A DNA stretch of 64,000 bases from Leptolyngbya sp. PLA1 (GCA_021405315.1 QWIH01000008.1:62001-126000), one strand, 5' to 3'; shown: positions 5,814 to 22,495, counted from the stretch's first letter. Program-made: numbers and translations. The notes: generated from the letters alone by a model not told the origin.

Positions 5814-7421
5814 TTACGGCAACGGCGGCAGCCCCAGTTCCTTCAGGAACGTGTTGTGCTTGGCCGTCGCCGCACGAATCTCTCCATCAAGCTCGACCAG
5901 CCTCCGGTGCGTCTCCGCCAGGTCGACCTCGGGCTCGTCCTGGGCCGTGCTGACGTACCGCGAGATGTTCAGATTGAAGTCGTTCGCCTCGATTTCCTTC
6001 ATCTCGACCCGGCGGGAGTATCGCTCCTCCTCCCTCCGGTGCTGGTAGGTCTCGACGATTTTGGTGATGTGCGCTGGCGTGAGCTGGTTTTGCCGCTTGC
6101 CCCTGTCGTAGTGCTCGCTGGCGTTGATGATCAGCACGTCGTCTGGCTTCTTGCACTTCTTCAGCACCAGGATGCACACGGGGATACCCGTGGAATAGAA
6201 CAGGTTGGCGGGCAGGCCGATGATCGTGTCGATGTGCCCGTCCTTGAGCAGCTTCGTGCGGATCTTCTCCTCCGCCCCGCCGCGGAACAGCACGCCGTGC
6301 GGCAGGATGATCGCCATCACCCCCTCATCCTTCAGATAGTGGAATCCGTGCAGCAGGAACGCGAAGTCCGCCGCCGACTTTGGCGCGAGGCCGTAATTCT
6401 TGAACCGCACGTCCTCGCCCATCGCCTCGCCGGGCTCCCAGCGGTAGCTGAAGGGTGGATTAGCGACGATGGCATCGAAGGCGGGTTTCTTGCGGGGGTT
6501 GGTCTCACGCAGGAAGTCCCATTCGTTCTTCAGCGTGTCGCCGTGATAGATCTCGAACTCGGAATCCTTCACCCCGTGCAGGAGCATGTTCATCCGCGCC
6601 AGGTTGTACGTGGTGATGTTGCTCTCTTGCCCGAGGATCTTCCCGATGCCGTGCGGCCCCATCCGCTTGCGGACGTTCAGCAGCAGCGAGCCGGAGCCGC
6701 ACGCGAAGTCGAGCACGCTGTCCAGTTTCTTCCTCTGGCCGGTCGCAGGCTCCTGGCTGTCCAAGGTGACGATCGCCGACAGGATGCTCGAGATCTGCTG
6801 CGGCGTGTAGAACTCGCCCGCCTTCTTGCCCGAGCCCGCGGCGAACTGCCCGATCAGGTACTCGTACGCGTCGCCCAGCGTGTCGGTGTCGGTTGAGAAC
6901 TCCGCCAGACCCTCGGCAATGCGCGTGATGACCGAGCACAGGCGGGTGTTTCGGTCGGCGTAGGTCTTGCCGAGCTTGTCCGATGCCAGGTTGATCTCCG
7001 AGAACAGCCCCTGGAAGGTGCTCTCGAAGGACTCGGTTTCGATGTACTTGAAGCCTCGCTCCAGAGTCTTGAGCAGATCGCCGCTCTGCGTGCGGGCCAT
7101 GTTGGCGATGCTGGCCCACAGATGCTCGGGCTTGACGACGTAGTGCACCTTGCGGCGCATCTGCTTCTCGAACGCGGCCACATCGTCGGGGTTGTTCGCG
7201 TACCAGATCGCCAGCGGGACGCGACGATCCTCACCCGTGATCTTGGGATAGTCGCGACCAAGCTCCTTCTGCGCCGCGCTCTCGTAGTTGTCCGAGAGGT
7301 AACGCAGGAACAGGAACGCGAGCATGTAGTCGCGGAAGTCGTCGGCGTTCATCGCGCCGCGGAGGTCGTCGGCGATGTTCCACAGGACCTTGCCGAGTTG
7401 TTTCTGATCGTTGTCGGTCAT
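5814..7421 (-). CDS. hsdM: Type I restriction-modification DNA methyltransferase subunit
   Basis: A 535-residue N6-adenine methyltransferase. The N-terminal HsdM helical domain (about 1-140) is followed by the Rossmann methylase domain with the S-adenosylmethionine motif DFACGSGSLLL at 238-248 and the catalytic NPPF at 321-324. The C-terminal helices (LAETHRRLVELDGEIRAA) should pack against HsdS. It forms M2S for modification and R2M2S for restriction. It lies 3 bases after the PrrC-like gene and is the last of four coupled genes transcribed leftward (hsdR, hsdS, ATPase, hsdM). Length and motifs are complete, so an active methylase is expected. Confidence 0.95.
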   Translation of the reverse strand: MTDNDQKQLGKVLWNIADDLRGAMNADDFRDYMLAFLFLRYLSDNYESAAQKELGRDYPKITGEDRRVPLAIWYANNPDDVAAFEKQMRRKVHYVVKPEHLWASIANMARTQSGDLLKTLERGFKYIETESFESTFQGLFSEINLASDKLGKTYADRNTRLCSVITRIAEGLAEFSTDTDTLGDAYEYLIGQFAAGSGKKAGEFYTPQQISSILSAIVTLDSQEPATGQRKKLDSVLDFACGSGSLLLNVRKRMGPHGIGKILGQESNITTYNLARMNMLLHGVKDSEFEIYHGDTLKNEWDFLRETNPRKKPAFDAIVANPPFSYRWEPGEAMGEDVRFKNYGLAPKSAADFAFLLHGFHYLKDEGVMAIILPHGVLFRGGAEEKIRTKLLKDGHIDTIIGLPANLFYSTGIPVCILVLKKCKKPDDVLIINASEHYDRGKRQNQLTPAHITKIVETYQHRREEERYSRRVEMKEIEANDFNLNISRYVSTAQDEPEVDLAETHRRLVELDGEIRAATAKHNTFLKELGLPPLP

Positions 7422-7424
7422 GGA

Positions 7425-8498
7425 TTAGTCCGCATGCAGCACAAACTTGTACCGCTCTTTCAGCTTCCCGAACACGTCTTCAAAGATCTTTCGGCTGTCG
7501 GGGATCAGCATGTCGGACTCGTAGTAGTACACCCGCTTGTGGGAAAGCACATTTATGATGTTCGCGGTTTCGCCGGGATCGTCGATGCCGATCTGCTCCA
7601 GCACGTATCGGAACTGGCCTACACCGAGAAACGAGGCGACGTTCTCGAGCACCTGACGGAGCAGGGCGAGGTGGTAGGCCCGAACGTCGTTGGCTTTCTG
7701 TGCTTTATCGAGAAGTTGGAGCAGTCGGAGGTGGTAGAGCAAAACGTCATCCCGACAGTCTTCCAGTTCGAGGTTGCCGGATCTGTCGCTGAGGATGAAC
7801 ATCTTCGTGTGCTTCTTGAACTTGTCAGCCTTCTCCCCCTTCGTGAGCCAATCCGCGAGAATCGAGAACAATCCGATGTGATGCGTCGTCACGATGATCT
7901 TGCGTTTCTCGAACTGGGACTCGATGAGGTCGAGGAGCGTGGAGGCGGTCACGAAGATGTTGTGGTCGTCGAGGCTGGACACGGGGTCATCGATGAAGAA
8001 GTGCCCAGGCTGTTTGTCGGCCCAGCCCTCGACCTCGAACAGAGCGAGGAAGAAGCACCACACGAAGATGCGCTCCTCGCCACGCGAGATCTTGATCGGG
8101 GCGGCGTCGTCCTTGGCATTCAACGGGTAGAACGAAATCGACTCGATGCCCCGCTCAGTATCCTTGTGGAATGCAAACTCGAAGTCGTACTTGGGTCGGA
8201 ACGGCCTCAGCTTGGCGCGCACGCGCTCCTCGTTAAACAGGGTGTGCAGTTTGTTGAGGCTGCAGTAGTTCACCATCATCCGGATGTTGGCCTCACCATT
8301 CTCGGTATCGTTGTTCCATGGGAACAGGTCTTCGCTGTAAGCGTTGTAGTAGACGCCCGCGTGTTTGCCATCTGCCGACTTGGTCGCGTTCTTGTAGGCG
8401 ACGGAGAGCTTGGTCTTGCCCGTGGAGTTAAACCCATAGGCCAGGATGATCTTGGCAGGGTTGTCTTTGATCGTCTTCGCAACTTCATCAACGGTCAT
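7425..8498 (-). CDS. PrrC-like ABC-ATPase, candidate anticodon nuclease guarding the type I system
   Basis: A 357-residue protein with an ABC-type ATPase: Walker A GFNSTGKT (22-29), signature-like SRGEE (138-142), Walker B and D-loop FFIDDPVSSLDD (167-178) and switch histidines TTHH (204-207). The C-terminal part contains R281-x3-E285 and H320 (LLRQVLEN, LSHKRV). This resembles the Arg-x3-Glu...His triad of the E. coli anticodon nuclease PrrC (R320, E324, H356), with a slightly longer last spacing. As with classical prrC, it sits between hsdS and hsdM. The start overlaps the hsdS stop as ATGA and has a strong GGAGGAG ribosome site. PrrC is held silent by the restriction complex and cleaves tRNA when phage disable restriction. 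The ATPase and location are plain; nuclease activity is inferred. The protein is about 40 residues shorter than PrrC, so another AAA_13 guard ATPase is possible. Confidence 0.7.
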   Translation of the reverse strand: MTVDEVAKTIKDNPAKIILAYGFNSTGKTKLSVAYKNATKSADGKHAGVYYNAYSEDLFPWNNDTENGEANIRMMVNYCSLNKLHTLFNEERVRAKLRPFRPKYDFEFAFHKDTERGIESISFYPLNAKDDAAPIKISRGEERIFVWCFFLALFEVEGWADKQPGHFFIDDPVSSLDDHNIFVTASTLLDLIESQFEKRKIIVTTHHIGLFSILADWLTKGEKADKFKKHTKMFILSDRSGNLELEDCRDDVLLYHLRLLQLLDKAQKANDVRAYHLALLRQVLENVASFLGVGQFRYVLEQIGIDDPGETANIINVLSHKRVYYYESDMLIPDSRKIFEDVFGKLKERYKFVLHAD

Positions 8499-9775
8499 GA
8501 GGGCTCCTCCGGTCGGGGGAACATCGCCTGCATCAGGCCGTGCTTATGAGCCTTCAGTGCGTCGAGGGCGGCTGCCTCGGCAGCGATGGTTGCATCAAGC
8601 GAGGCGAGGCAGTCGGCGACGCGCGTCTGCTCCTCAGGGTGCGGGATCGACACGTCCATCGCCTTTAGCTTGTCTGTATCGAGCCGCCCGGTGCCGTGGC
8701 CCGCCATGTCTACAAGGCGCATGAGGCGTTCACGGCGAGACACGAGAAGGAAGGCCAGGTAGCGGCCATCGGAACCGTCACGCGGCCGCACCGCACGCAC
8801 GTCTTGATTGAAACTCATCGGGCGACGCGGCAAACAGATGGGCACGTCTTTGAGCAGCGTCATGCCGCGCGTGAGGATCAGGATCGTGCCCGGCGGCACG
8901 AGTTTCGCTCCGTCAGCGATCGCCTCATCGGTAATGTGGTCTTCCGTGTCCTCTAGGAAGAGGTGCTTCATGTCCTTGGCAGACACCCATGGGATCGTGC
9001 CGTTCCAGAACGCTGCTATGGACTTAGACGGCGTGCCCCCAGACTGGAAATCCGCTGCCTCTCCCAGCGGTGCCGTCCACCATTTAGGCCCGTCGCGGAA
9101 CTCTGGGAAGCGGAGGCGAGGGACGGTTTGACCATCCTGGGGAAAGAGGTGCTGCATCAGCGTCCGCTTGTGGGCGCCTAGAGCGTCCAGCTTGCGGACG
9201 CGAGTGGTGATCGCCTCGTCCAGCGATATCAGGCAGTCGGCAATCTTCCTTTGCTCGCTGGGGGACGGCACGGGGATCAACTGCTCTGAGAACTGCGCAT
9301 AGCTGATCATCTTGCCGTCGCGGAGGCCCTCGATGTTCCGGTTCAACTGCTTGATGAAGCGGGCGGACTTGAAGAGATGGCGGAAGTAGTCGTCGACACC
9401 CACGCCCTTTCGGCGCAGGATCACGTACGCCGGACTGCAGATGCCGTGGAATCGGGAATACTCGATGCCGCCCTGAAACGAGCGGAGGCTGATGATGAAG
9501 TCTCCGACGCACACCTCCTTGTATGTGGCGATGCTCTCGGCGGTCGCGGAGACGTGGTAGTCGATGTGATCACGCGGGATCGCACCATGCTCCTGCGTGA
9601 TCGCCAGGACTGGCAGACCAGGAGCGGCGGACCGGTTATTGATCGCGTCGAAGAGTGCGTCGCCCCGCTTCAGGTCCCAAGCAGGCGCAGATCGGAATGC
9701 CGGAAACCGCAGCTTCGGCACGAGCCCGGGCTCGCCGTCCCCCTTCACCGAGTTGGGCTTGGGCTTACTGCTCAT
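8495..9775 (-). CDS. hsdS: Type I restriction-modification specificity subunit
   Basis: A 426-residue protein with the two-repeat layout of HsdS: target recognition domain 1 (about 20-160), a conserved helix ending in PSPSEQRKIADCLISLDEAI, target recognition domain 2 (about 215-365), and a second conserved helix HPEEQTRVADCLASLDATI. Each half begins with a similar phrase (PKLRFPAFR and PRLRFPEFR), showing the internal duplication. The two recognition domains differ, so the target should be bipartite and asymmetric. The ATG at 9775 gives an 11-base overlap with hsdR; a GTG at 9781 is an alternative. It overlaps the ATPase gene by 4 bases. Confidence 0.93.
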   Translation of the reverse strand: MSSKPKPNSVKGDGEPGLVPKLRFPAFRSAPAWDLKRGDALFDAINNRSAAPGLPVLAITQEHGAIPRDHIDYHVSATAESIATYKEVCVGDFIISLRSFQGGIEYSRFHGICSPAYVILRRKGVGVDDYFRHLFKSARFIKQLNRNIEGLRDGKMISYAQFSEQLIPVPSPSEQRKIADCLISLDEAITTRVRKLDALGAHKRTLMQHLFPQDGQTVPRLRFPEFRDGPKWWTAPLGEAADFQSGGTPSKSIAAFWNGTIPWVSAKDMKHLFLEDTEDHITDEAIADGAKLVPPGTILILTRGMTLLKDVPICLPRRPMSFNQDVRAVRPRDGSDGRYLAFLLVSRRERLMRLVDMAGHGTGRLDTDKLKAMDVSIPHPEEQTRVADCLASLDATIAAEAAALDALKAHKHGLMQAMFPRPEEPS

Positions 9776-12764
9776 ACGCACTCAGTCCCGAGATGTCGCG
9801 CCCGCTGGCCCGCTTCTTGAGCAGCGGCACCAGGTCCTCCATCAACGCCAGTTCCTTCTGTGTGCGGGCCTTCCAGCCCAGATTGAGCGGGGCAAGCAGG
9901 TCGACAAGTTGCTCGCCGTCGAAGATCATGCGGGCGATGATGCCGTCGACGAACGTCTCCAGTGAGGCGGTCAGCAGGCCGTGCTTCTCGGCGACGGTGG
10001 CGAGCTCACGGGCGTTCTTCTCTGCCTTGAATCTCTGGAACCCGGCGCGAACGGCCTTCTCGTCCAGCGCCCTGCCCGCCTCCAGCGAGCGGACGTACTC
10101 GGTGATCGTCTCTCGCTCGTCCATGAACTTCGCGTCGGATTGGATCAACCCGATGAGCTGATCGCGGCTCATCTTCTGCCGCTTGGGGTCCTGTCCCGTA
10201 AAGCGGGCGATCAGATTCATGATGTAGTCGTAGTCGATGACGGCGGACGCGAAGAGCACGAACTCGAAGTCGAGCTGGTCGATCGCGGGGTTTGGCTCCT
10301 CGCCAGACTTGGCCCGCTGCGCCTTGAGGCGCTGGGCGGTCTCCAGGTACGCACCGCGGAAGGCCTCCAACTGCTCGCGTGGGAGGATCTGCTTGATGGC
10401 CTGCTTGTTATCCTGGGTCAGATCAGTGTACTGATCGAGCTGCGTCTGGAGGCGCTGGACCTCCTTGAACCGGTTGATGAACTGGGCACGGGCATCGTCG
10501 CCCTTGAGGTTTGACACATCCTCGGGCTTGCATGTCAGACCCTGGGACTGCATGAACGCGCCGAGATCGCCGACGGCGGCGCGGAGCTTCTCGATGACCG
10601 TCGGGGCCTTGTCGACCAGCCAGATCTCGCGGGCGCGATCGGCCTTCGCGCCGGAGAACAGGGCGATGGCGGCGTCGACGGCCTCCTGCTGATTGCGGAA
10701 ATCGAGGATGTTGCCGTACGGCTTGGTCGCGTTCAGGACGCGGTTGGTGCGGCTGAAGGCCTGGATCAGGCCGTGATGCTTGAGGTTCTTATCGACGTAC
10801 AGGGTATTCAGATACTTGGAGTCAAAGCCGGTGAGCAGCATGTCGACGACGATGACCACGTCGATCTTCTGCGCGTGCGGCAGGTCGGAGTTCGGGAACT
10901 GCTGGTCCTTGATGCGCTTCTGGACGTCCTGGTAGTAGAGGTCGAACTCCTCGACGCGGTGGTTGGTGCCGAAGAGCGCGTTGTATTCGTCGATGATGCC
11001 CTTGAGGGCCTTCTTCTTCCCCTCGGGATCCTGCTGGTTGTCGGCCCGCTCCTGAGGCAGGTCCTCCTGGATCTGCTTGACATCCGGATCGCCGTCGGCG
11101 GGCGGCGAGAAGACGCTCGCGACGTTCAGCGGCGCGTACTCGGGATCGGCGGCGGCCCGCTCGCGCTGGGCGTCCTTGAACACCTTTACGTACTCGATGG
11201 CGTCGTTGATGGACGAGGTCGCGAGGATGGCGTTGAACCGGCGGCCGCCGGTGGCGGCGTCGTGCTTGGCGATGATGGCGTCGGCAACGGCGCGCTTGGC
11301 GAGGGTCTCACCCGGCTTGATCGTGCGGCCTTCGGGCTTGTAGTAGTCGACGTGGAAGCGCAGGACGTTCTGGTCTTCGATGGCGTGCGTGATCGTGTAC
11401 GCGTGCAGTTCACGCTGGAACAGGTCCTGCGTCGTCCGCAGCGATGCCTGCTCGCCCTCGATCTTCTTGTAGCTCGCATTCTCCTCGAAGATCGGCGTGC
11501 CGGTGAACCCGAAGAGTTGCGCCTTCGGAAAGAACTCCTTGATGGCGTCATGGTTGTCGCCGAACTGGGAGCGGTGACACTCGTCGAAGATGATCACCAT
11601 CCGCTTGCCGCGAAGAGAATCGAGGATCTCTGCGTACGTCTGCTTGCCCTCCGCCTTCCTCTTCGTGTTGCGCTTGCTGCTCTCATCAAGGGCGAGTCCC
11701 AGTTTCTGAATGGTGGTGACGATGACCTTGTCGGCGTAGTCATCGGAGAGCAAACGTCGCACGAGTGCGTACGTGTTCGTGTTCTCCTCGACGCACCCCT
11801 CCTGGAAACGGTTGAACTCCTCGCGAGTCTGGCGGTCGAGGTCCTTCCTGTCGACAACGAATAGGCACTTCTCGATATCCGGGTAGTCCTTCAGCAGCGT
11901 GGACGCCTTGAAGGACGTGAGCGTCTTGCCGCTGCCGGTGGTGTGCCAGATGTAGCCGTTGCCACAGTTCTGATGGATGCAATCCACGATCGCCTTCACG
12001 GCATAGATCTGGTACGGCCGCATCATGAGCAGTTTCTGCTCGCTCGCAACGAGCACCATGTAGCGGCTGATCATTTGGCCGAGCGTGCACTTGGCCAGGA
12101 ACTTCTCGGCGAAGCTGTCCAGGTGCGTGATCTTGGAGTTGTCCTCCGCGGCGAACTGGTACACGGGGAGGAATCGCTCGTCGGCGTTGAAGCTGAAGTG
12201 CCGGTTGTTGTTGTTGGCGAAGTACCAGGTGTCAGTCCGATTGCTCACGACGAACAACTGGATGAAGCACAGGAGCGTCCGGGTGTACCCGTTGCCGGGG
12301 TCATTCTTGTACTCGACGATCTGCTCGATGGCGCGTCGCGGGCTGATGCCGAGCGTCTTCAACTCGATCTGGACGGCGGGCACGCCGTTGATGAGCAGAA
12401 GCACGTCGTAGCGGTGGTGACTGTTGTCGGTGTTGATGCGGAGTTGGTTCACCACCTCGAAAGTGTTCTTACACCAGTCCTTGATGTTCACCAGCGTGTA
12501 GTTCAGGGGCGTCCCGTCATCGCGGGTGAAGGTGTTCGTGTCACGGAGCATGCGGGAGGCGGTGAACACGTCTGGCGTGACGATCTCGTCCAGCAGACGC
12601 TGGAACTCACCCTCCGTCAGGGTGACGTGGTTCAGAGCCTGGAACTTCTCGCGGAAGTTCCGCTCGAGCGCAGCCCGGTCCCGGATGTCCGAGCGGTGTG
12701 CGAACTTCAGTTCCTGAAGCTTCGCGATCAGCTGATCTTCGAGTTCGCGTTCGGTGGACGTCAT
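9765..12764 (-). CDS. hsdR: Type I restriction endonuclease, motor and nuclease subunit
   Basis: A 999-residue protein. The N-terminal PD-(D/E)xK nuclease shows D121 (RYDVLL) and the E-L-K at 135-137 (VQIELKTLG). The SF2 translocase has Walker A TTGSGKT at 276-282 and the DECH box at 395-398. A further helicase motif appears as LLTGFDSKYLNTLYVDK near 650. A helical C-terminus would dock on the methylase. The ATG at 12764 is preferred to the GTG one codon upstream. It begins 8 bases after the stop of a small HTH gene and overlaps hsdS, so the four hsd-locus genes form one transcript. All key residues are present; the system looks functional. Confidence 0.95.
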   Translation of the reverse strand: MTSTERELEDQLIAKLQELKFAHRSDIRDRAALERNFREKFQALNHVTLTEGEFQRLLDEIVTPDVFTASRMLRDTNTFTRDDGTPLNYTLVNIKDWCKNTFEVVNQLRINTDNSHHRYDVLLLINGVPAVQIELKTLGISPRRAIEQIVEYKNDPGNGYTRTLLCFIQLFVVSNRTDTWYFANNNNRHFSFNADERFLPVYQFAAEDNSKITHLDSFAEKFLAKCTLGQMISRYMVLVASEQKLLMMRPYQIYAVKAIVDCIHQNCGNGYIWHTTGSGKTLTSFKASTLLKDYPDIEKCLFVVDRKDLDRQTREEFNRFQEGCVEENTNTYALVRRLLSDDYADKVIVTTIQKLGLALDESSKRNTKRKAEGKQTYAEILDSLRGKRMVIIFDECHRSQFGDNHDAIKEFFPKAQLFGFTGTPIFEENASYKKIEGEQASLRTTQDLFQRELHAYTITHAIEDQNVLRFHVDYYKPEGRTIKPGETLAKRAVADAIIAKHDAATGGRRFNAILATSSINDAIEYVKVFKDAQRERAAADPEYAPLNVASVFSPPADGDPDVKQIQEDLPQERADNQQDPEGKKKALKGIIDEYNALFGTNHRVEEFDLYYQDVQKRIKDQQFPNSDLPHAQKIDVVIVVDMLLTGFDSKYLNTLYVDKNLKHHGLIQAFSRTNRVLNATKPYGNILDFRNQQEAVDAAIALFSGAKADRAREIWLVDKAPTVIEKLRAAVGDLGAFMQSQGLTCKPEDVSNLKGDDARAQFINRFKEVQRLQTQLDQYTDLTQDNKQAIKQILPREQLEAFRGAYLETAQRLKAQRAKSGEEPNPAIDQLDFEFVLFASAVIDYDYIMNLIARFTGQDPKRQKMSRDQLIGLIQSDAKFMDERETITEYVRSLEAGRALDEKAVRAGFQRFKAEKNARELATVAEKHGLLTASLETFVDGIIARMIFDGEQLVDLLAPLNLGWKARTQKELALMEDLVPLLKKRASGRDISGLSAYEQ

Positions 12765-12771
12765 CACGATT

Positions 12772-14878: not shown

Positions 14879-14940
14879 CCGCCCACGTCCCGCCACGTTG
14901 GCCCGACGTGCCGCCGGTTAGCGACGCCCGGGAATCGGGG
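14879..14940. repeat. 62-bp repeat, copy A
   Basis: About 62 bases nearly identical to 21533-21594, in the same orientation, including an uninterrupted identical run of 28 bases. Weaker similarity continues for roughly 100 bases, ending near a shared TTGTGCAAG. The core contains CACGT and ACGTG half-sites forming a short dyad around TGGCCCG. It probably marks the end of a mobile unit. Confidence 0.65.
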
Positions 14941-15005
14941 CCAGCGCGTGCCCCGCCCGCCCGTGGGCGAACGTCGCGGGACGGGCGCGGGGGCGAGAAT
15001 CGCCA

Positions 15006-16214
15006 TCACGCGCACGCTTGTGCAAGCGCGTGTGCAAGCGAACGCGGGGCGCGTCGAAAGTGGCCATATTCACGGGGCTTTCGATCGCGAGCCCGGGCGT
15101 TCCCAAGCTGAATGTCGGGAGTTCGATCCTCCTCGCCCGCTTTCAGGTCACGAGTCGTCAGGACTCGCAAAGCCTCGTCAATCGTCGCACAATTCGAGAT
15201 CTTGGCGATGGCCTCCTCCGAGAAGACGGGGAGCGCCGGGGCGTCTGCCGTCGTCAGGATTGGTCGGAAAAAGTGCTGGGAGTGCTGGGGCCGGTGCTGG
15301 GGCGACTGGACGGCTTCCGGTGCCGTTGCAGAGGTTGGACCGACCGTTGAAGGGCCGTCTGTCCCAGTCGCCTTGAGGTCGCTCGTGGCTGCCGTCCCGA
15401 GTACAGGGCCGAGCTTGGCGACGGCTCGCTTCTGGTCGGCGAGCCCGAGGTCGGCGTAATGCTTGAGCGTGGTCTCGATGCTGGCGTGCCTCATCTGGAG
15501 CTTGACCTCGGGGAGCAACCCACCAGCTTGCAGCAGCAGCGTCCCTGCCGTAGTGCGGAGGGCGTGCCGGTCGATTCGACGCCCCTCGGCGTCGAACTCG
15601 TGGATTCCTGCTCTCTTGAGGTCCGCCGACAAGGTTCGAGTAGTTGGGATCGTCTGGAAGACCCGATCCGAGCCGACAGCATCGCTCGGTTTGAGGCGGC
15701 GAAACGTGGCGATGACCTCGGGGTGGAGGGCAATCCAGTCGTCTCGCTTCGACTTGCTGATGTGGGCAGGGACCAGGAGCGCCGCCGAGTCGAGATGGAT
15801 CTGGCCCCAGGTGAGCGAAGTCAGTTCCTTGACCCGCAGCCCCGTCAGGACGGCGACGAGGTAAAAGTCTCCTCTTGGGCCAGAGGACGTGACCAATCGT
15901 GTCAGTTCTTCAGGAGTGAGAGACCGACGACGGACCCGCTTGGCTCCCGTCTCCGCCAGCTTTTCGAGCGAGGCACAAGGGTTGTACGGAAGTCGCTTTG
16001 TTCGTACTGCCCAGTTCAGAAAGGCGATGACGGCGGAACGGACGCCGTTGGCCGTGGTTGTCCCGATGGAGCGCTCCTCACCCTTGGACGGGCGAAGCTG
16101 CTTCACCGGCGTCTGCAACAGTCGCCGGAGGTGAGCGTCCACCCGCTCGTCGGTCAAGTCGATCAGCCTGTTCGCTTTCGTGTCATCGATGATTTCGTCA
16201 AGCGCTCGAAGCAC
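15006..16214 (-). CDS. Tyrosine integrase with tRNA-Gly attachment site, N-terminus truncated
   Basis: The reading runs from a GTG at 16214, with an in-frame stop just upstream, to 15006 (402 codons). Catalytic residues are present: Arg in TGLRVKELTS, HxxR in DRHALRTTAG, and Tyr in TLKHYADLG. The core-binding domain is partly intact (DEIIDDTKANRLIDLTDERV onward), but the usual 50-100 residues before it are missing. They are replaced at about 16195 by an AbiEii fragment on the other strand. The C-terminal tail EEDRTPDIQLG is the antisense reading of a tRNA-Gly 3' half, typical of integrases whose gene overlaps their attachment site. The catalytic half is complete, but the truncated N-terminus makes function doubtful. 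Confidence 0.8.
   Translation of the reverse strand: MLRALDEIIDDTKANRLIDLTDERVDAHLRRLLQTPVKQLRPSKGEERSIGTTTANGVRSAVIAFLNWAVRTKRLPYNPCASLEKLAETGAKRVRRRSLTPEELTRLVTSSGPRGDFYLVAVLTGLRVKELTSLTWGQIHLDSAALLVPAHISKSKRDDWIALHPEVIATFRRLKPSDAVGSDRVFQTIPTTRTLSADLKRAGIHEFDAEGRRIDRHALRTTAGTLLLQAGGLLPEVKLQMRHASIETTLKHYADLGLADQKRAVAKLGPVLGTAATSDLKATGTDGPSTVGPTSATAPEAVQSPQHRPQHSQHFFRPILTTADAPALPVFSEEAIAKISNCATIDEALRVLTTRDLKAGEEDRTPDIQLGNARARDRKPREYGHFRRAPRSLAHALAQACA
15100..15141 (+). other. Attachment site: 3' half of tRNA-Gly(CCC)
   Basis: The 42 bases match the 3' part of a tRNA-Gly: anticodon loop TTCCCAA (15100-15106, anticodon CCC), anticodon stem strand GCTGA, variable loop ATGTC, T stem-loop GGGAG TTCGATC CTCCT (15117-15133), acceptor strand CGCCCGC and discriminator T at 15141. 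The 5' half is absent; the upstream bases do not pair with GCTGA. Identity therefore begins at the anticodon loop, a common crossover point for tyrosine integrases. The integrase gene reads through it. It is either an attP or the downstream end of an integration. Confidence 0.75.
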
Positions 16215-16405
16215 GCCTCAGAACGGTCGCTGAACAACGAGGAGTTCAGATTCAAGGTCTCCGGCTCAAGGTCGCAATCGAACGACTCCTTGCTCGTCTG
16301 TTCAACGCTGCGAATCCGCCGTGGCTCCTCAAGGGCGGATACTCGATGGAGCTTCGCTTCCGTCCAAAGGCGAGGACAACCCGAGATGTAGACCTGACGG
16401 TTGGA
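16192..16405 (+). pseudogene. AbiEii-type nucleotidyltransferase, N-terminal fragment
   Basis: The plus frame reads FRQALEARLRTVAEQRG, then LKVAIERLLARLF, then WLLKGGYSMELRF and ARTTRDVDLTV. This is the N-terminal third of AbiEii/AbiGii toxins of type IV toxin-antitoxin systems, including the LKGG and RxTxDxDL nucleotidyltransferase motifs. No start codon is visible; a stop precedes the Phe codon. After DVDLTV the frame runs straight into the viperin C-terminal part, so the rest of the toxin is missing. The matching antitoxin AbiEi was not found nearby. Confidence 0.7.
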
Positions 16406-17122
16406 GAACCAACTCTTGCTCCCTTTATGGGCGACCTCCTCGTCACGTCCAAGTCCGTGGAGATGGTCACCAGCATCGTGACGAACGGAGAACGCCTAGC
16501 TCGGCTCGTTGAAACGCACGGTTCGTACCTTGACTGGGTGGGGTTGTCAGTGGACTCGGCGTCGGAGGCGACGGAGATCGCTCTGGGGCGTGGCCGAGGC
16601 GGACATGTCGCTCGCTCGCTAGAACTGTTCGCCCTCTTGCGGGACCGAGGGATTCAGACCAAGCTCAACACCACGGTCACCAGACTGTCCGTGGACGAGG
16701 ACATGTCGGGTTTCGTCCTCGCAGCACGCCCACAGCGCTGGAAGGTGTTCCAGGTCTTGCCCGTTGAAGGACAGAATGACGGCGGGGTCGATGATCTCCT
16801 GATCACGACCCAGCAGTTCGAGGCCTTCGTTCAGCGGCACCTCCATCTGCGAGACAAAGGCATCCACCTCGCTGTCGAAGCCAACGAGGACATGACTGGC
16901 TCGTATGCCATGATCGATCCGCTCGGACGCTTCTTCAGCAATGTCGAAGGTCGTTACCTGTACTCCCAGCCCATTCTGGAGGTCGGCGTGTCCGCTGCCT
17001 TCGAACAGGTCCAGTTCAGCCAACAGCGGTTTCTGCAACGAGGGGGTCAGTACGACTGGACTCCCGCCGTCGTCACCGTGTCCGCTAAGAACATCAAGAG
17101 CGACTCTCGGGGGTGCCTGTGA
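16403..17122 (+). pseudogene. Prokaryotic viperin, C-terminal part (residues about 67 to end)
   Basis: Beginning at the EP of the GGEP motif, the frame gives 238 residues matching the radical SAM viperin family. VDSASEATEIALGRGRG is followed by the KLNTTVTRLSVDEDM and RWKVFQVLPVEGQN strands, then ILEVGVSAAF and FLQRGGQYDW, the family's C-terminal signatures. Viperins convert CTP, UTP or GTP to 3'-deoxy-3',4'-didehydro nucleotides that terminate viral RNA chains. The cluster-binding N-terminus is not here but at 20041-20238. Added together, the pieces give 304 residues, the usual pVip length. Here the piece is joined in frame to an AbiEii fragment, so it cannot be active as placed. The stop overlaps the next gene as GTGA. 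Confidence 0.85.
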
Positions 17123-17661
17123 AGAAGCGCAACAAGAGCATGCCATCCGCTCGTCGCCCGAGCATGGCGGAGCAAGTCGCATCGCTATCCACAGACTTGA
17201 GCAACCGGGCCTTCGCCCGAGCGCAAGAACTGAGCGCCCTTGCCAAGGTGGCGAGAGGTCGTGAGCGCCAGAGGCTGTACATGGGCAAACACAGCATCCT
17301 CTCCTCCCTCGTGCAGCGAGGTTTGGTTCGAGTCACCCTCGACGATTCAAGGCATGTGGGCCTGCTCAGCATCGTCGCTCCAAGCGGCCAGCGATTGCAC
17401 ACATCCGATACATGGCTGGAAGCAGCGGTATCTTCGACGCATCCAGGAAAGTGCGCGGCTGTGGTCTCTGTCCGCCCGACAGGCTGTTCGGAATGCCATT
17501 CGGTCCTCGGATCGCCACCCCGTCGTTGTGGAAGCTCTGGTCAAGAGGTCGGAGATTCTGATGCTCTCGAACGCTTTGCCGACCGGTTCGGTTCTCGCTT
17601 GCCCAGACGACGTTCGAGAAGAGCGCACGCACAAGGACTCGGGCAAGTGGATATCTGCTGA
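17119..17661 (+). CDS. Small protein coupled to viperin, unknown function
   Basis: A GTG at 17119 overlaps the viperin stop by 4 bases (GTGA), so this gene was translated with pVip. The 180-residue reading begins with a basic, helical region (KKRNKSMPSARR, STDLSNRAFARAQELSALAK) and a short beta-rich part (GLVRVTLDDSRHVGLLSIVAPSG). From about 17400 the frame looks unnatural (Cys/Arg/Pro-rich), while the next frame (that of the 17240-17671 reading) gives plausible protein (VVVEALVKRSEILMLSNALP), ending WISAEPL at 17671. A frameshift or a join near 17400-17450 is likely. No domain is recognised; it is not a nucleotide kinase, the commonest pVip neighbour. Confidence 0.45.
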   Translation: MKKRNKSMPSARRPSMAEQVASLSTDLSNRAFARAQELSALAKVARGRERQRLYMGKHSILSSLVQRGLVRVTLDDSRHVGLLSIVAPSGQRLHTSDTWLEAAVSSTHPGKCAAVVSVRPTGCSECHSVLGSPPRRCGSSGQEVGDSDALERFADRFGSRLPRRRSRRAHAQGLGQVDIC

Positions 17662-17676
17662 GCCGCTCTGATCCTC

Positions 17677-18056
17677 AGCAGCTTGCGGATCGCCGCTCGG
17701 TCGAGCGACTTCGGAACTGACTCCTGACGGCGAAGTTCCTTCACGCCCTCCACCGGCGACGACTGAACGTGTCCCTTGTCCTTCAGCCAGCCGAAGAAGC
17801 GGCGCAGCGAGACCAGGTTCCGATTGACCGTCGCCACCGACTGATTGCGTTCACGCCTGAGCGAGTCCCTGAAGTCTGCGCAATCTCGGGTGGTGATCCG
17901 TGACAGATCGAACGCCTCGCGGTTGGCAGCAACGAACCACTTGCCGAACTTGATCAGGTCCGAACGCACCGCTCGACGGCTGGCGGCGGCGTAGTCGGTT
18001 GCCTCCATGAAGCCCTCGATCAGAGGCAGGAGGACGTTTCGTAGAGATGGACTCAC
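17677..18056 (-). pseudogene. Tyrosine recombinase, N-terminal fragment
   Basis: From a GTG at 18056 the minus frame gives an intact SAM-like core-binding domain: FMEATDYAAASRRAVRSDL, ITTRDCADFRDSL, ATVNRNLVSLRRFFGWL and SSPVEGVKELRR. The first helix of the catalytic domain follows (SLDRAAIRKLLR). Similarity stops at about 17677, before any catalytic residue. This differs from the integrases at 1-978 and 15006-16214, so at least three recombinases have been active here. The open frame continues to 17541 as unrelated sequence. Confidence 0.7.
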
Positions 18057-18057
18057 T

Positions 18058-18760
18058 CTTTTCCAGGTGAATGCCGAGGCCCTGAGCAATCTTGCGGGCG
18101 GCGTCGAACTCAAGCACAAACCCAGCGACCTTGCTGCCCTTCTTGCTCGTGGTCTCCTCCTCTTCATCATTCTCGGCTTCTTCGCCGTCTTCACCCTCGC
18201 CGCTCGATTGCGGCTTCCCACCGCCGAGCGTCCAAAGCCACATGGCCGTGAGCCGAGCATCCGGCTCAAGCCCAGCGGCATCGGCATCCTTGAAGATCAT
18301 GGACAGCGCCTCGCTGGAAACGGCGGCCCACACATGCTCCAGGTACTCTCGAAGCGTGACCGCCTCGCCACTCGCCTTCTCGACCCGGCTGTACCGGCTG
18401 AAGATCTCAAGGGCGGGGCCGAGGCACGCAAAGATGGCGTCAGCACCTACAACCCCTTCGTCTGCCAATCTGGGCATCCACTCGCTCAACCGAATGGGGA
18501 GTTCGTTGAGTATTTCACGCCACTCTCCAGCCTCACCCGACGTGGTAGCTCCATCGACACGCTCACGTGGCCGAACGACGAGGTGAACGCTACTTGCCAG
18601 CGCTGCCGAGTCCTGCGCCCGCAGTCTTCCTGGACGCTCCGTGTCGATTGGCCAGGACCCCGTTACCGTCCAGCCTCCGTCAATCATCGCTTTGAGTTGA
18701 GCTTCCCATCCCGCCGTGGACTTGTGGGCAAAGACCACGATCCCGAATCCACTTGGCATC
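18058..18760 (-). pseudogene. DUF1156-type DNA methylase, C-terminal fragment
   Basis: The minus frame reads GFGIVVFAHKSTAGWEAQL, then WPIDTERPGRLRAQDSAALA, ADAIFACLGPALEIFSRYSR, VTLREYLEHVW and DARLTAMWLWTL. These are characteristic of the C-terminal half of DUF1156 methylases, large adenine-specific enzymes of defence-type loci. The catalytic NPPY half is missing upstream (beyond 18760), and the extreme C-terminus is cut at about 18060, where the recombinase fragment begins. A Glu/Asp-rich linker (EDGEEAENDEEEE) is present. Confidence 0.75.
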
Positions 18761-18769
18761 CCCATCCAC

Positions 18770-19909
18770 GTGGATGCGCTCGCTCGACTCTTTGCAGCCA
18801 AGATCAAAGGCTCGGATGAACACACCCTGATTCAGGCCTTTCGACGAGCCGTTGGCGTTGCCTCACTTATCGAGCGGTTCCGGCAGATCGTCGGGCAGCG
18901 CTCCGTTCTTGAGTACGCCGGTGGGTACATCCTCTTCGTTCGATGGACCACCGAGCTTGCGGACGCAGATGTCGCTGCGGACCCTTTGGCTCAGGCACTC
19001 TTCGCCGCCATCTTAGTCCTTGGCACAGCCCATCCGTCCAACGGTCCCGTGCTGATTGACTGGGCCGAGAAAGTCAGGGGCATTCCGTGGATGGACGACA
19101 TCCTCAAGTCTCATCCTGTTGACCGCTCGGCCCGGCTAAAGGAGAGCTTCCGCATCGTTGGAGAAGCGCAGAAGCGGCAAGACGACATGGATGAGGTGAT
19201 CCCTCAGGCGACGCCAGAGGAGCGGCAGTTTGTCTCTGAGCGAGCCGCCTGGCAGGCGCTTGCTTCTCCGGTCCTGCCTCCGGAGCAGCTTGAGAAGCTG
19301 CGGACTGGCGAGCACGTCATGTACAGGATTAAGGCCCGCAATCCTGCTCATGCGGCTGAGAACAGAACAATGCAGGCGTCTCAGGCGGCTGCCAACAAGG
19401 ACTTCCACACCGCCTGCGTTCATGCAGCACGGGCGGCGCATCTACAACCAGAGCGAGCCGACTATCGGTTCTTCTTCGGCTGCTATCTCTGGCAAGCTCG
19501 ACGATGGGCTGAGGCAGTTGAACAACTGCAAGAGGCTTGCAGACTAAAGCCCGATTGGGACCGACCGTTCGTTGAAATCGCCATCGTGCATGCAAACCGT
19601 GGGCTGTATGACAGCGCCATTTACCATCTGGAAACTGCCCCAGAGGCACTTCGGAACGGGTCTGCGTGGCTCCAGTTCGTCCTTGGGAAACTCCATTGGC
19701 AGTCGAAGGCCTATGAGAAGGCTCTGCCCTGCCTTGAGGCAGCGATCAAGCTTGACGACAAGGGTGGCGAAGCATTCGACCTCGCTGCGGATACTGCCTT
19801 TCGGATGGGAAAACGCAGCCTTGGCGAAAAGTACGCCAAGGAGGCCAAACACCGAGGTGTGTTTGCGAGCTTTAAACAGTGGCAAGACGGCGGCTACCCC
19901 ACCCTCTGA
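18770..19909 (+). CDS. TPR protein upstream of viperin, N-terminus probably lost
   Basis: The frame is open from 18716, but the first part is antisense to the DUF1156 fragment, so the native start is unknown; a GTG at 18770 is the first plausible one (about 379 residues). The N-terminal half is helical without a recognised domain (LARLFAAKIKGSD, GGYILFVRWTTELADADV). The C-terminal half (about 210-379) has tetratricopeptide repeats: AANKDFHTACVHAARAAHLQPERADYR, RRWAEAVEQLQEACRLKPDW, KAYEKALPCLEAAIKLDDKG. It ends 131 bases before the viperin start on the same strand and lies in the same block, so it may be part of the viperin locus. A partner or regulator role is inferred. Confidence 0.65.
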   Translation: MDALARLFAAKIKGSDEHTLIQAFRRAVGVASLIERFRQIVGQRSVLEYAGGYILFVRWTTELADADVAADPLAQALFAAILVLGTAHPSNGPVLIDWAEKVRGIPWMDDILKSHPVDRSARLKESFRIVGEAQKRQDDMDEVIPQATPEERQFVSERAAWQALASPVLPPEQLEKLRTGEHVMYRIKARNPAHAAENRTMQASQAAANKDFHTACVHAARAAHLQPERADYRFFFGCYLWQARRWAEAVEQLQEACRLKPDWDRPFVEIAIVHANRGLYDSAIYHLETAPEALRNGSAWLQFVLGKLHWQSKAYEKALPCLEAAIKLDDKGGEAFDLAADTAFRMGKRSLGEKYAKEAKHRGVFASFKQWQDGGYPTL

Positions 19910-20040
19910 TGACTTGGCTGCCTTTGTCCACTCCGTGCCGCCGACAGAACGTCCTCGGCAAGCGAAACTGATCTCCGATTCGAGCGAGTCCATTCGGTTC
20001 ATGTCGAACTGATGCTCGCTCCCGACTCTGGAGACTCAGT

Positions 20041-20265
20041 ATGGGACACGCTCTTCCCCCCGCCGTCAACCTGCACTTCTGGAAGCCCTGCAACTACCGC
20101 TGCAAGTTCTGCTTTGCGACGTTCGACGATGACGCCGCTCTGAAGACCGTTCGAGGCGGACTTGGCCGAGATGAGTGCATTCGGTTGCTTCGGCTCCTTC
20201 GTCAGGCTGGCACAGAAAAGATCAACTTCGTCGGAGGAGACGCGCGTGTTCGTGAATCAGCGTGA
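20041..20265 (+). pseudogene. Prokaryotic viperin, N-terminal part with the Fe-S motif
   Basis: An ATG at 20041, with GGAG about 8 bases upstream, starts MGHALPPAVNLHFWKPCNYR. The radical SAM C-x3-C-x2-C motif follows as CNYRCKFC and then FATFDDD, as in viperins. The helix GRDECIRLLRLLRQAG and the strand KINFVGG lead to the GGEP motif, where the sequence breaks at about 20238. The frame then ends in eight unrelated residues. The remainder of the protein starts at 16403. The two copies of the junction share GGAGA, so a circular molecule would restore GTC GGA GGA GAA CCA (VGGEP) exactly. Confidence 0.85.
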
Positions 20266-20374
20266 AGTGTCGCTGGCCGATCTGATGCCGAAGTCTACAG
20301 AGTGGCTCCAAGCCCTTGCCACGGTGATCGCCAAGACTGAGGAAGGCGGAGCATCGCGACGCGAAGATACATGA
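20237..20374 (+). other. C-terminal fragment of an unidentified protein
   Basis: Directly after the viperin break, another frame is open to a TGA at 20374. It gives about 45 natural-looking residues (RVFVNQREVSLADLMPKSTE, WLQALATVIAKTE). No start or family is recognised. It is not the missing part of the AbiEii toxin as far as I can tell, because joining at the shared GGAGA gives a different frame with an early stop. Confidence 0.35.
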
Positions 20375-20403
20375 AGCGGTGAAGCTGGTGCGGTGCACCG
20401 ATC

Positions 20404-20770
20404 TCAGCGAGCGGCCACCGCTGCCGTTCGCTCGCCAACCCCGCCCAGCGGCAGGTCCGGCAGGCTCGCCACTGCCCCGGCCACGTCGAGGAGTTTGGGG
20501 TCGGTGTAGACGTTGGCCGTCAGGCTCGGGTCGCTATGCCGCATCGCGGCCTGCGCCGTCCGCAGCGGAACGCCCGCCTTGGAGAGGTGGGTGCCGAAGG
20601 TGTGCCGCAGCGCATGGATGTCGATCGTGCGGCCGCGATCGTCGGTCTTGATGACGACCTCCTTGCCGCCGCGACTCTCGACGCGGGCCAGACCAGCGAA
20701 CACCAAGTCGCGGTCGAAGATGCGGATCAGCCCGTCGGGCACGTCGAACAGCGGCTCGTCATTCGCGAGC
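20404..20770 (-). pseudogene. Tyrosine integrase C-terminal remnant
   Basis: The minus frame gives LFDVPDGLIRIFDRDL, the HxxR box DIHALRHTFGTHLS, TAQAAMRHSDPSL and the tyrosine in ANVYTDPKLLDVA, ending GVGERTAAVAAR. This is the last third of an integrase of the same family as that at 1-978. Everything before about residue 300 is missing and the VIT gene ends just upstream at 20799. It cannot be active. Confidence 0.8.
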
Positions 20771-20798
20771 GCCGCCGCGGGGCGCGCTCCGCGTCGCG

Positions 20799-21532: not shown

Positions 21533-21594
21533 CCGCCCACGTCGCGCCACGTTGGCCCGACGTGCCGCCGGTTGGCGACGCCCGGGAGTCGGGG
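21533..21594. repeat. 62-bp repeat, copy B
   Basis: Near-identical to 14879-14940 in the same orientation, with about five mismatches. It starts 44 bases upstream of the VIT gene start. Together with the integrase remnant on the other side of VIT, it frames the transporter as the element at 1-15,000 is framed by its integrase and copy A. Confidence 0.65.
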
Positions 21595-21713
21595 CAAGCG
21601 CTGGGCTGGGCCGCCCGGGGGCAAACGTGGCGGGGCGGACGCGCGAGCGGGAGATCCGATTCATGCGCCGCGCTGCGCAAGCGGTTGTGCAAGGTGTGCC
21701 GGGCCGGGGTCGG

Positions 21714-22329: not shown

Positions 22330-22495
22330 GTGGCATGCCCGCCACCACTCAGCGGGTGGGCGACCGCCCGTACTGGTCCGCCAACCTTCGCCAGCGGCAG
22401 GCTCGCCGCGGCTCGAGCGACGTCGAGGAATCGTGGGTCGGTGTACACGTTGGCCGTGCGGCCCGGGTGGCGGTGGCGCATCGCGGCCCGTGCGG
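22330..22495 (-). pseudogene. Second integrase C-terminal remnant
   Basis: The minus frame reads AMRHRHPGRTANVYTDPRFL and DVARAAASLPLAKVGG, matching the tail of the remnant at 20404 (AAMRHSDPSLTANVYTDPKL). Only about 50 residues survive, directly downstream of the TauE/SafE gene that ends at 22519. Confidence 0.7.

What the first reader, a model, noticed from the sequence alone, without database searches (positions are those of the whole stretch)
16403..20265. A prokaryotic viperin gene split into two pieces in the wrong order
The viperin N-terminus with CNYRCKFC lies at 20041-20238, and the remaining 238 residues start at 16403, upstream on the same strand. The break is inside the GGEP motif. 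Both ends carry GGAGA, and joining 20240 to the bases after 16407 restores VGGEPTLAP in frame and a protein of 304 residues, the normal pVip size. That is what is expected if a circle of about 3.84 kb (TPR-viperin-small gene) opened inside viperin and inserted here. It implies either a circularising defence module or a collapsed assembly.
Basis: partly seen in the sequence, partly recalled or inferred. Interest (0 to 1): 0.85.

Follow-up and report, generated by a model that had tools for sequence, protein, structure and literature searches.

The report
Viperin split within scrambled defence-gene fragments
A bacterial antiviral gene (viperin) really is broken in two with its halves in the wrong order, but it sits in a 4-kb patchwork of truncated defence and integrase genes at a defence-gene landing site, so it looks like stitched-together debris of defence DNA rather than an intact circularising defence module.

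Summary
The two pieces (20041-20240 and 16403-17119) are the halves of one prokaryotic viperin. Joined, they score 282.8 bits against NCBIfam viperin (cut-off 180) and align without a gap to intact viperins across the break. No other copy was found in the genome.

The stretch is not a TPR-viperin-small-gene module. Between a truncated integrase (to about 16190) and the last 43 codons of a nuclease (from 20239) lie fragments of AbiEii, viperin plus a truncated small gene, an unknown 194-aa gene, a second integrase, the HmaB (DUF1156) methylase, and a TPR protein lacking roughly its N-terminal third. Seven junctions fall in 4.05 kb, all inside or beside genes, with about 0-5 bp of possible overlap. 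Coding pieces remain open. The locus is a defence-cargo slot next to tRNA-Gly integrative elements. A same-genus genome has an intact nuclease there, 97% identical to the window from exactly base 20239.

Best explanation: recent end-joining of broken defence-island DNA, with one break in viperin supplying both ends. A captured circle, or a tandem duplication trimmed twice, cannot be excluded. A collapsed assembly would not by itself create these junctions. Reads would decide.

The parts
15100..15143 (+). Right attachment site: 44-bp exact copy of the 3' part of tRNA-Gly(CCC), whose intact gene lies at contig C34:60353-60424 (about 1.6 kb left of the window)
   Evidence: blastn 44/44 identity; ARAGORN tRNA-Gly
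15006..16187 (-). int1: tyrosine integrase next to the attachment site, N-terminus missing (junction J1 at about 16187-16193)
   Evidence: Phage_integrase 9.5e-15; 51-53% aa identity to integrases beside tRNA-Gly in G270 and G441, DNA match ends at 16187/16193
16193..16402 (+). AbiEii toxin gene, residues about 15-84 only
   Evidence: PADLOC AbiEii 1.1e-24; 83% aa identity to G402/G409 AbiEii; match ends at 16402-16404; no other AbiEii in the genome
16403..17119 (+). Viperin C-terminal part (residues 67-304), in frame with the AbiEii piece (open frame of 309 codons)
   Evidence: NF038283 6.8e-65; joined protein 282.8 bits
17122..17456 (+). Small unknown gene directly after viperin, cut off at about 17456
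   Evidence: open frame; no family; DNA after 17456 belongs to another gene in two relatives
17457..17676 (+). C-terminal 70 codons of an unknown 194-aa gene
   Evidence: 94% DNA identity to G420 and G408, where the gene is whole
17677..18050 (-). int2: N-terminal about 125 codons of a second tyrosine integrase; about 540 bp (catalytic half) deleted between this and the 194-aa-gene piece
   Evidence: 91% DNA identity to the whole 318-aa integrase in G420
18050..18756 (-). HmaB (DUF1156 adenine methylase) fragment near the C-terminus, about 235 codons
   Evidence: PADLOC HmaB 3.5e-23; 65% aa identity to G420:C451; plasmid DUF1156 DNA match spans 18059-18756; no other HmaB in the genome
18757..19909 (+). 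TPR protein, C-terminal about 383 residues of a family about 570-650 aa long
   Evidence: TPR domains; relatives of about 600-650 aa open frame in G418, G458, G538, G524; whole relatives next to viperin in L046 and L049
20041..20240 (+). Viperin N-terminal part (residues 1-66), ends inside GGEP
   Evidence: NF038283 1.5e-14, PADLOC pVip-kinase 1.1e-16
20239..20376 (+). Last 43 codons of a nuclease-like cargo gene (intact, 427 aa, in same-genus G395)
   Evidence: 97% DNA identity to G395 over window 20239-20500; first 42 residues identical; alignment
20404..20790 (-). int3: 3' end of an integrase of the same family as int0 (C34:61530-62979)
   Evidence: 90% DNA identity to the int0 3' end; 96% aa identity to G430 and G440 integrases

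Best explanation
The stretch is a patchwork of broken defence-island DNA in the cargo slot of integrative elements at tRNA-Gly(CCC). A piece of DNA carrying AbiE, a TPR-viperin operon, an Hma system and a 194-aa gene plus integrase was broken into short pieces, and the pieces were end-joined, out of order and with little or no microhomology, between the remnant of one element (int1) and the tail of another element's nuclease cargo. One double-strand break inside viperin gave both viperin ends: the downstream piece was joined to AbiEii and the upstream piece to the nuclease. The local product is dead as viperin, AbiE, Hma and nuclease. Shown: the pieces, their truncation, the junction positions, the unoccupied relative, and the absence of other viperin, AbiEii and HmaB copies from the assembly. 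Inferred: a single recent episode, end-joining as the chemistry, and a common donor.
For: Seven junctions in 4.05 kb with at least six source genes. The piece boundaries seen by unrelated relatives coincide (int1 to 16187/16193 and AbiEii from 16193; 17680 and 17677; 18051 and 18050; HmaB to 18756 and TPR from 18758). None of the coding pieces has an internal stop in its frame, suggesting recency. Piece G+C is 57-62% against 68% in the rest of the window. No junction resembles the att site or another junction. The remainder of AbiEii and HmaB is absent from the assembly. Same-genus G395 has the intact nuclease, matching from exactly 20239. Insertion of DNA pieces of 30 bp to 18.8 kb at double-strand-break repair sites has been measured in Streptomyces (PMC5869714).
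Against: Ku was not found in this assembly (92% complete), although 2 of 7 same-genus genomes have it, so classical NHEJ is unproven here. The order and orientation of the 194-aa gene and int2 are native, with only about 540 bp missing, so at least that junction looks like an ordinary deletion. Separate events over time cannot be told from one episode without intermediates. The donor island was not found.
Confidence: 0.5

Rival explanations
1. Circle capture: a 3.84-kb segment that already held the HmaB, int2 and 194-aa-gene scraps next to TPR-viperin closed on itself (the closing joint could be 18050), was linearised once inside viperin, and was captured between the AbiEii and nuclease stumps.
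For: The two viperin ends fit one cut with no base lost and at most 5 bp shared. Joining them restores a full-length viperin.
Against: The unit is not an intact module and carries no working recombinase (int2 lacks its catalytic half). No similarity of the viperin site to att or to other junctions. The flanks are fragments of two different genes, so integration alone does not explain the locus. No circle or plasmid carrying it was found in the collections searched.
Confidence: 0.25
2. Tandem duplication followed by two deletions: the unit was duplicated (joint at 18050 or nearby), then one deletion ran from AbiEii into the first viperin copy and another from the second viperin copy into the nuclease.
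For: Uses only ordinary events; the junction pattern is the same as for a circle.
Against: Both deletions would have to stop within 5 bp of the same point of viperin. By simple arithmetic that is about 1% if both ends are random within the gene and about 0.2% within the unit.
Confidence: 0.12
3. Artefact: chimeric template or mis-assembly in a draft genome (3.4 Mb, 93 contigs).
For: Draft assembly; no reads available; complex junctions; no second genome carries the same patchwork.
Against: Overlaps of 5 bp or less cannot mislead a k-mer assembler. All pieces are single-copy, whereas chimeras should leave the parent copies in the assembly, and none were found. The right flank is contiguous with the same sequence in an independent genome.
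Confidence: 0.13

Closest known systems
Prokaryotic viperin (pVip; NCBIfam NF038283, PADLOC pVip)
   Same: CxxxCxxC and GGEP motifs, full profile coverage when joined, 59-60% identity to intact pVips in L118, L171 and L172
   Different: Split in two pieces in permuted order; no full-length product can be made from the locus
Defence-cargo hotspots of phages and satellites (P2/P4 hotspots, PMC9122126)
   Same: Small variable slot between conserved borders of an integrative element; cargo differs between genomes: TIR/ThsB-like here, PD-T4-3-like in G430 and a near-identical gene in G440, PDC-S11-like nuclease in G395
   Different: Here the second slot holds scrambled fragments instead of intact systems; the element lies in Phycisphaerales-like planctomycetes at tRNA-Gly, between the tRNA and the 3' end of the integrase
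Insertion of DNA pieces at double-strand-break repair sites in Streptomyces (PMC5869714)
   Same: Foreign or ectopic pieces joined at break sites with little or no microhomology
   Different: There one insert per break from the same genome; here about six pieces of defence and integrase genes, and no Ku found in this assembly
Integrons and other cassette arrays
   Same: Several gene pieces in a row near tyrosine integrases
   Different: No shared recombination sequence at the joints; pieces are truncated genes in both orientations

Membership tests
Prokaryotic viperin | Radical SAM CxxxCxxC and GGEP, profile score over the curated cut-off | tested here: met
   Joined protein 282.8 bits against cut-off 180; C17, C21, C24 and GGEP invariant in the alignment
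Prokaryotic viperin | One intact gene that can make the enzyme | tested here: not met
   Two pieces in permuted order, no other copy in the genome
Prokaryotic viperin | ddh-nucleotide synthesis / anti-phage activity | not testable with these tools
   needs biochemistry with an intact relative
Circularising mobile module | Own working recombinase within the unit | tested here: not met
   int2 in the unit lacks the catalytic half; no other recombinase inside
Circularising mobile module | Recombination site shared by both ends or with the host att site | tested here: not met
   Best 15-mer match of each junction to att is at background level
Circularising mobile module | Same unit found free, or inserted elsewhere | tested here: not met
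   No such unit in 151 relatives by DNA, or in the plasmid and phage collections; no close viperin hit in viral contigs
Defence-cargo slot of a tRNA-integrated element | Conserved borders with variable cargo | tested here: met
   tRNA-Gly with leader and integrase 3' end conserved; TIR, GIY-YIG or nuclease cargo in different genomes
Defence-cargo slot of a tRNA-integrated element | Cargo shown to defend | not testable with these tools
   profile assignments only
Integron cassette array | attC-like repeat at each junction | tested here: not met
   Pairwise junction comparison shows no shared sequence
End-joining product | Junctions with 0-5 bp overlap and no long homology | tested here: met
   Alignments at J1, J2, J3b, J4 and J6; J3a and J5 lack a close parent on one side
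End-joining product | Ku/LigD present | tested here: inconclusive
   Ku not found in this 92%-complete assembly; present in 2 of 7 same-genus genomes; LigD not tested

The most novel reading that the evidence does not exclude
Tandem tRNA-Gly elements in these planctomycetes may have a process that repeatedly collects short broken pieces of defence genes and joins them in the cargo slot, sometimes making in-frame chimeras such as the 309-codon AbiEii-viperin frame: a fragment-capturing shuffler of defence genes.
Probability: 0.05. Interest if true: 0.8.

Novelty: new variant of a known kind. Interest (0 to 1): 0.4.

Why it matters
Defence islands are known to turn over fast, but the intermediates are rarely caught. 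A recent patchwork with seven mappable joints and an unoccupied same-genus locus shows how defence cargo can be destroyed and restitched, and offers a testable case of multi-piece end-joining in a bacterium. It also warns against annotating the pieces (pVip, AbiEii, Hma) as working systems.

Tried and rejected
A single-protein scan for the joined viperin in genome and viral contigs found nothing; an alignment-based scan then found many intact pVips. Intact duplicate elsewhere explaining the pieces: rejected. Pieces from different radical SAM families: rejected. Site-specific recombination at GGAGA using the att core: rejected. Integron-like array: rejected (no common joint sequence). Rfam families in the window: none. 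The repeat at 14879-15038 / 21533-21693 as borders of the patchwork: rejected, because in relatives the same sequence is part of the right end of the element. My first gene calls for 'small gene' (182 aa) and 'int2 248 aa' were chimeric frames and were withdrawn after the relatives were seen. Literature searches for bacterial shattering or multi-piece joining gave no direct precedent beyond break-site insertions in Streptomyces.

Full report
WHAT IS THERE. The window is contig C34:62001-126000 of a planctomycete draft genome (3.41 Mb, 93 contigs, completeness 92%). That it is Phycisphaerales-like is my reading of the gene content and relatives, not a taxonomy call. 20041-20238 encodes the first 66 residues of a viperin up to VGG, and 16403-17119 encodes GEPTLAP... 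to the stop. Each piece finds viperin profiles on its own. Joined, they reach 282.8 bits with the NCBIfam prokaryotic viperin model against a cut-off of 180, and they align without a gap over the joint to intact viperins from many phyla. Same-family and same-order genomes G455 and G475 carry intact viperin, and a viral contig (L118) has a 59% identical one. In this genome the place is unique.

THE PATCHWORK. A DNA search of 150 relatives, with the loci fetched afterwards, cut the stretch into pieces whose ends meet almost to the base. int1 (integrase, minus strand) runs to 16187-16193. AbiEii residues about 15-84 run from 16193 to 16402-16404. Viperin C-part plus the start of a small unknown gene runs to about 17456. 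The last 70 codons of an unknown 194-aa gene plus its downstream spacer run from 17457 to 17680. The N-terminal about 125 codons of a second integrase run from 17677 to 18051; in G420 the 194-aa gene and this integrase are whole and about 540 bp more lie between the matching parts. A fragment of HmaB, a DUF1156 methylase, runs from 18050 to 18756; cyanobacterial plasmid DUF1156 genes match exactly 18059-18756. A TPR protein from 18758 lacks its N-terminus: relatives have open frames of about 600-650 aa, and family members lie directly after viperin in two Chloroflexi loci, L046 and L049. Viperin N-part runs to 20240. From 20239 the last 43 codons of a nuclease-like gene follow, then the 3' end of an integrase (int3). 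None of the coding pieces has an internal stop in its frame. The pieces are 57-62% G+C against 68% in the rest of the window. The missing parts of AbiEii and HmaB were not found elsewhere in the assembly.

THE JOINTS. At J2 the AbiEii relatives read GAC-CTG-ACG-(C/A)TC-GGC and the window reads GAC-CTG-ACG-GTT-GGA-GAA-CC, so GG is shared for certain and up to GGAGA is possible. At J6 the nuclease of G395 reads GCG-TGG-ACG-CGC and the window GGA-GGA-GAC-GCG-C, so GA is shared. The GGAGA at both ends therefore need not be a recombination site. The two viperin ends are what one cut in viperin, with no base lost, would give. The other joints with known parents show about 0-2 bp of overlap, no more than expected by chance. 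No joint resembles the attachment site or another joint.

THE PLACE. tRNA-Gly(CCC) lies at C34:60353-60424 and a 44-bp exact copy of its 3' part at window 15100-15143. They bound a 16.7-kb integrative element (int0, a primase-like gene, a type I restriction system). G430 holds a relative of this element, 78% identical over 5.1 kb, with the same att repeats. Between the tRNA and the integrase 3' end these elements carry one cargo gene that changes from genome to genome: a DUF1883-TIR protein close to ThsB/PDC-S66 here, a GIY-YIG PD-T4-3-like protein in G430 and a near-identical gene in G440, and a nuclease with a PDC-S11 match in same-genus G395. The patchwork occupies the corresponding slot of a truncated neighbouring copy: to its right lie the tail of the G395-type nuclease and an integrase 3' end of the int0 family, and to its left the attachment site with int1, an integrase that sits beside tRNA-Gly in other genomes. 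The window matches G395 at 97% identity from exactly 20239.

HOW IT LIKELY AROSE. The locus is a dead patchwork. The coincidence of the two viperin ends calls for one cut in viperin. Three histories give that. (1) DNA of a defence island was broken and its pieces were end-joined in the slot, so that the two viperin pieces ended up in different neighbourhoods. (2) The unit was circular (or closed by the joint at 18050), was cut once in viperin and captured. (3) A tandem copy was trimmed by two deletions that happened to stop within 5 bp of each other. I prefer (1) because six or more source genes, seven joints and no shared joint sequence within 4 kb need multi-piece joining anyway, and viperin then needs nothing special. 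Insertion of pieces at break sites is documented in Streptomyces (PMC5869714). Against a Ku route, Ku is not found in this assembly, though 2 of 7 same-genus genomes have it. (2) remains open; its signature would be reads joining 20240 to 16408. A collapsed circle in the assembly is not a good explanation, since it would leave no AbiEii|viperin or viperin|nuclease joint, and overlaps of 5 bp or less do not mislead assemblers. Chimeric library DNA cannot be excluded without reads, but all pieces are single-copy.

VERDICT. It is an unusual, probably recent case of defence-cargo destruction and restitching in a known kind of place.

Noticed in passing
L005:5684-6484 (contig C34:60683-61483, left of the window): DUF1883-TIR protein (PADLOC PDC-S66 2.5e-71, ThsB 1.7e-44) as cargo between tRNA-Gly and int0; the same slot holds PD-T4-3-like and nuclease genes in relatives, so this slot could be mined for defence genes.
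   Followed up: partly
L118:5853-8885, L171:3248-6580, L172:3534-6773: Viperin preceded by a 590-670-aa gene without Pfam or PADLOC match in the three closest relatives (L172 also a DUF2325-like gene after viperin; L171 a similar small frame between the two); in L118 it appears to sit between portal- and terminase-like genes of a phage contig (portal/terminase by my reading).
   Followed up: partly
L046:8791-11433 and L049:8890-10602: TPR proteins with a TSGQIIGALV-type N-terminus directly after viperin in two Chloroflexi loci; a candidate viperin partner family to which the truncated TPR in the window belongs.
   Followed up: partly
L170:5524-6872 (G408): The 194-aa gene is whole there, but the int2 relative is reduced to its C-terminal half and abuts the C-terminal half of another integrase in opposite orientation: a second, simpler truncated-integrase chimera in this family.
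   Followed up: partly
window 14879-15038 and 21533-21693: 160-bp direct repeat, 82% identical; in relatives it belongs to the right end of the tRNA-Gly element, so the copy at 21.5 kb probably marks another element remnant.
   Followed up: partly
window 20395-20601, 22395-22493 and C34:61521-61726: Three copies of the integrase 3' end along the contig, two of them beside inorganic-ion transporter genes (VIT-like, cation efflux, by my reading); suggests repeated integration and truncation.
   Followed up: no
window 5829-12770: Type I restriction system inside element 1 with an AAA-like gene (7437-8504) between the methylase and specificity genes (assigned by reading the translations).
   Followed up: no
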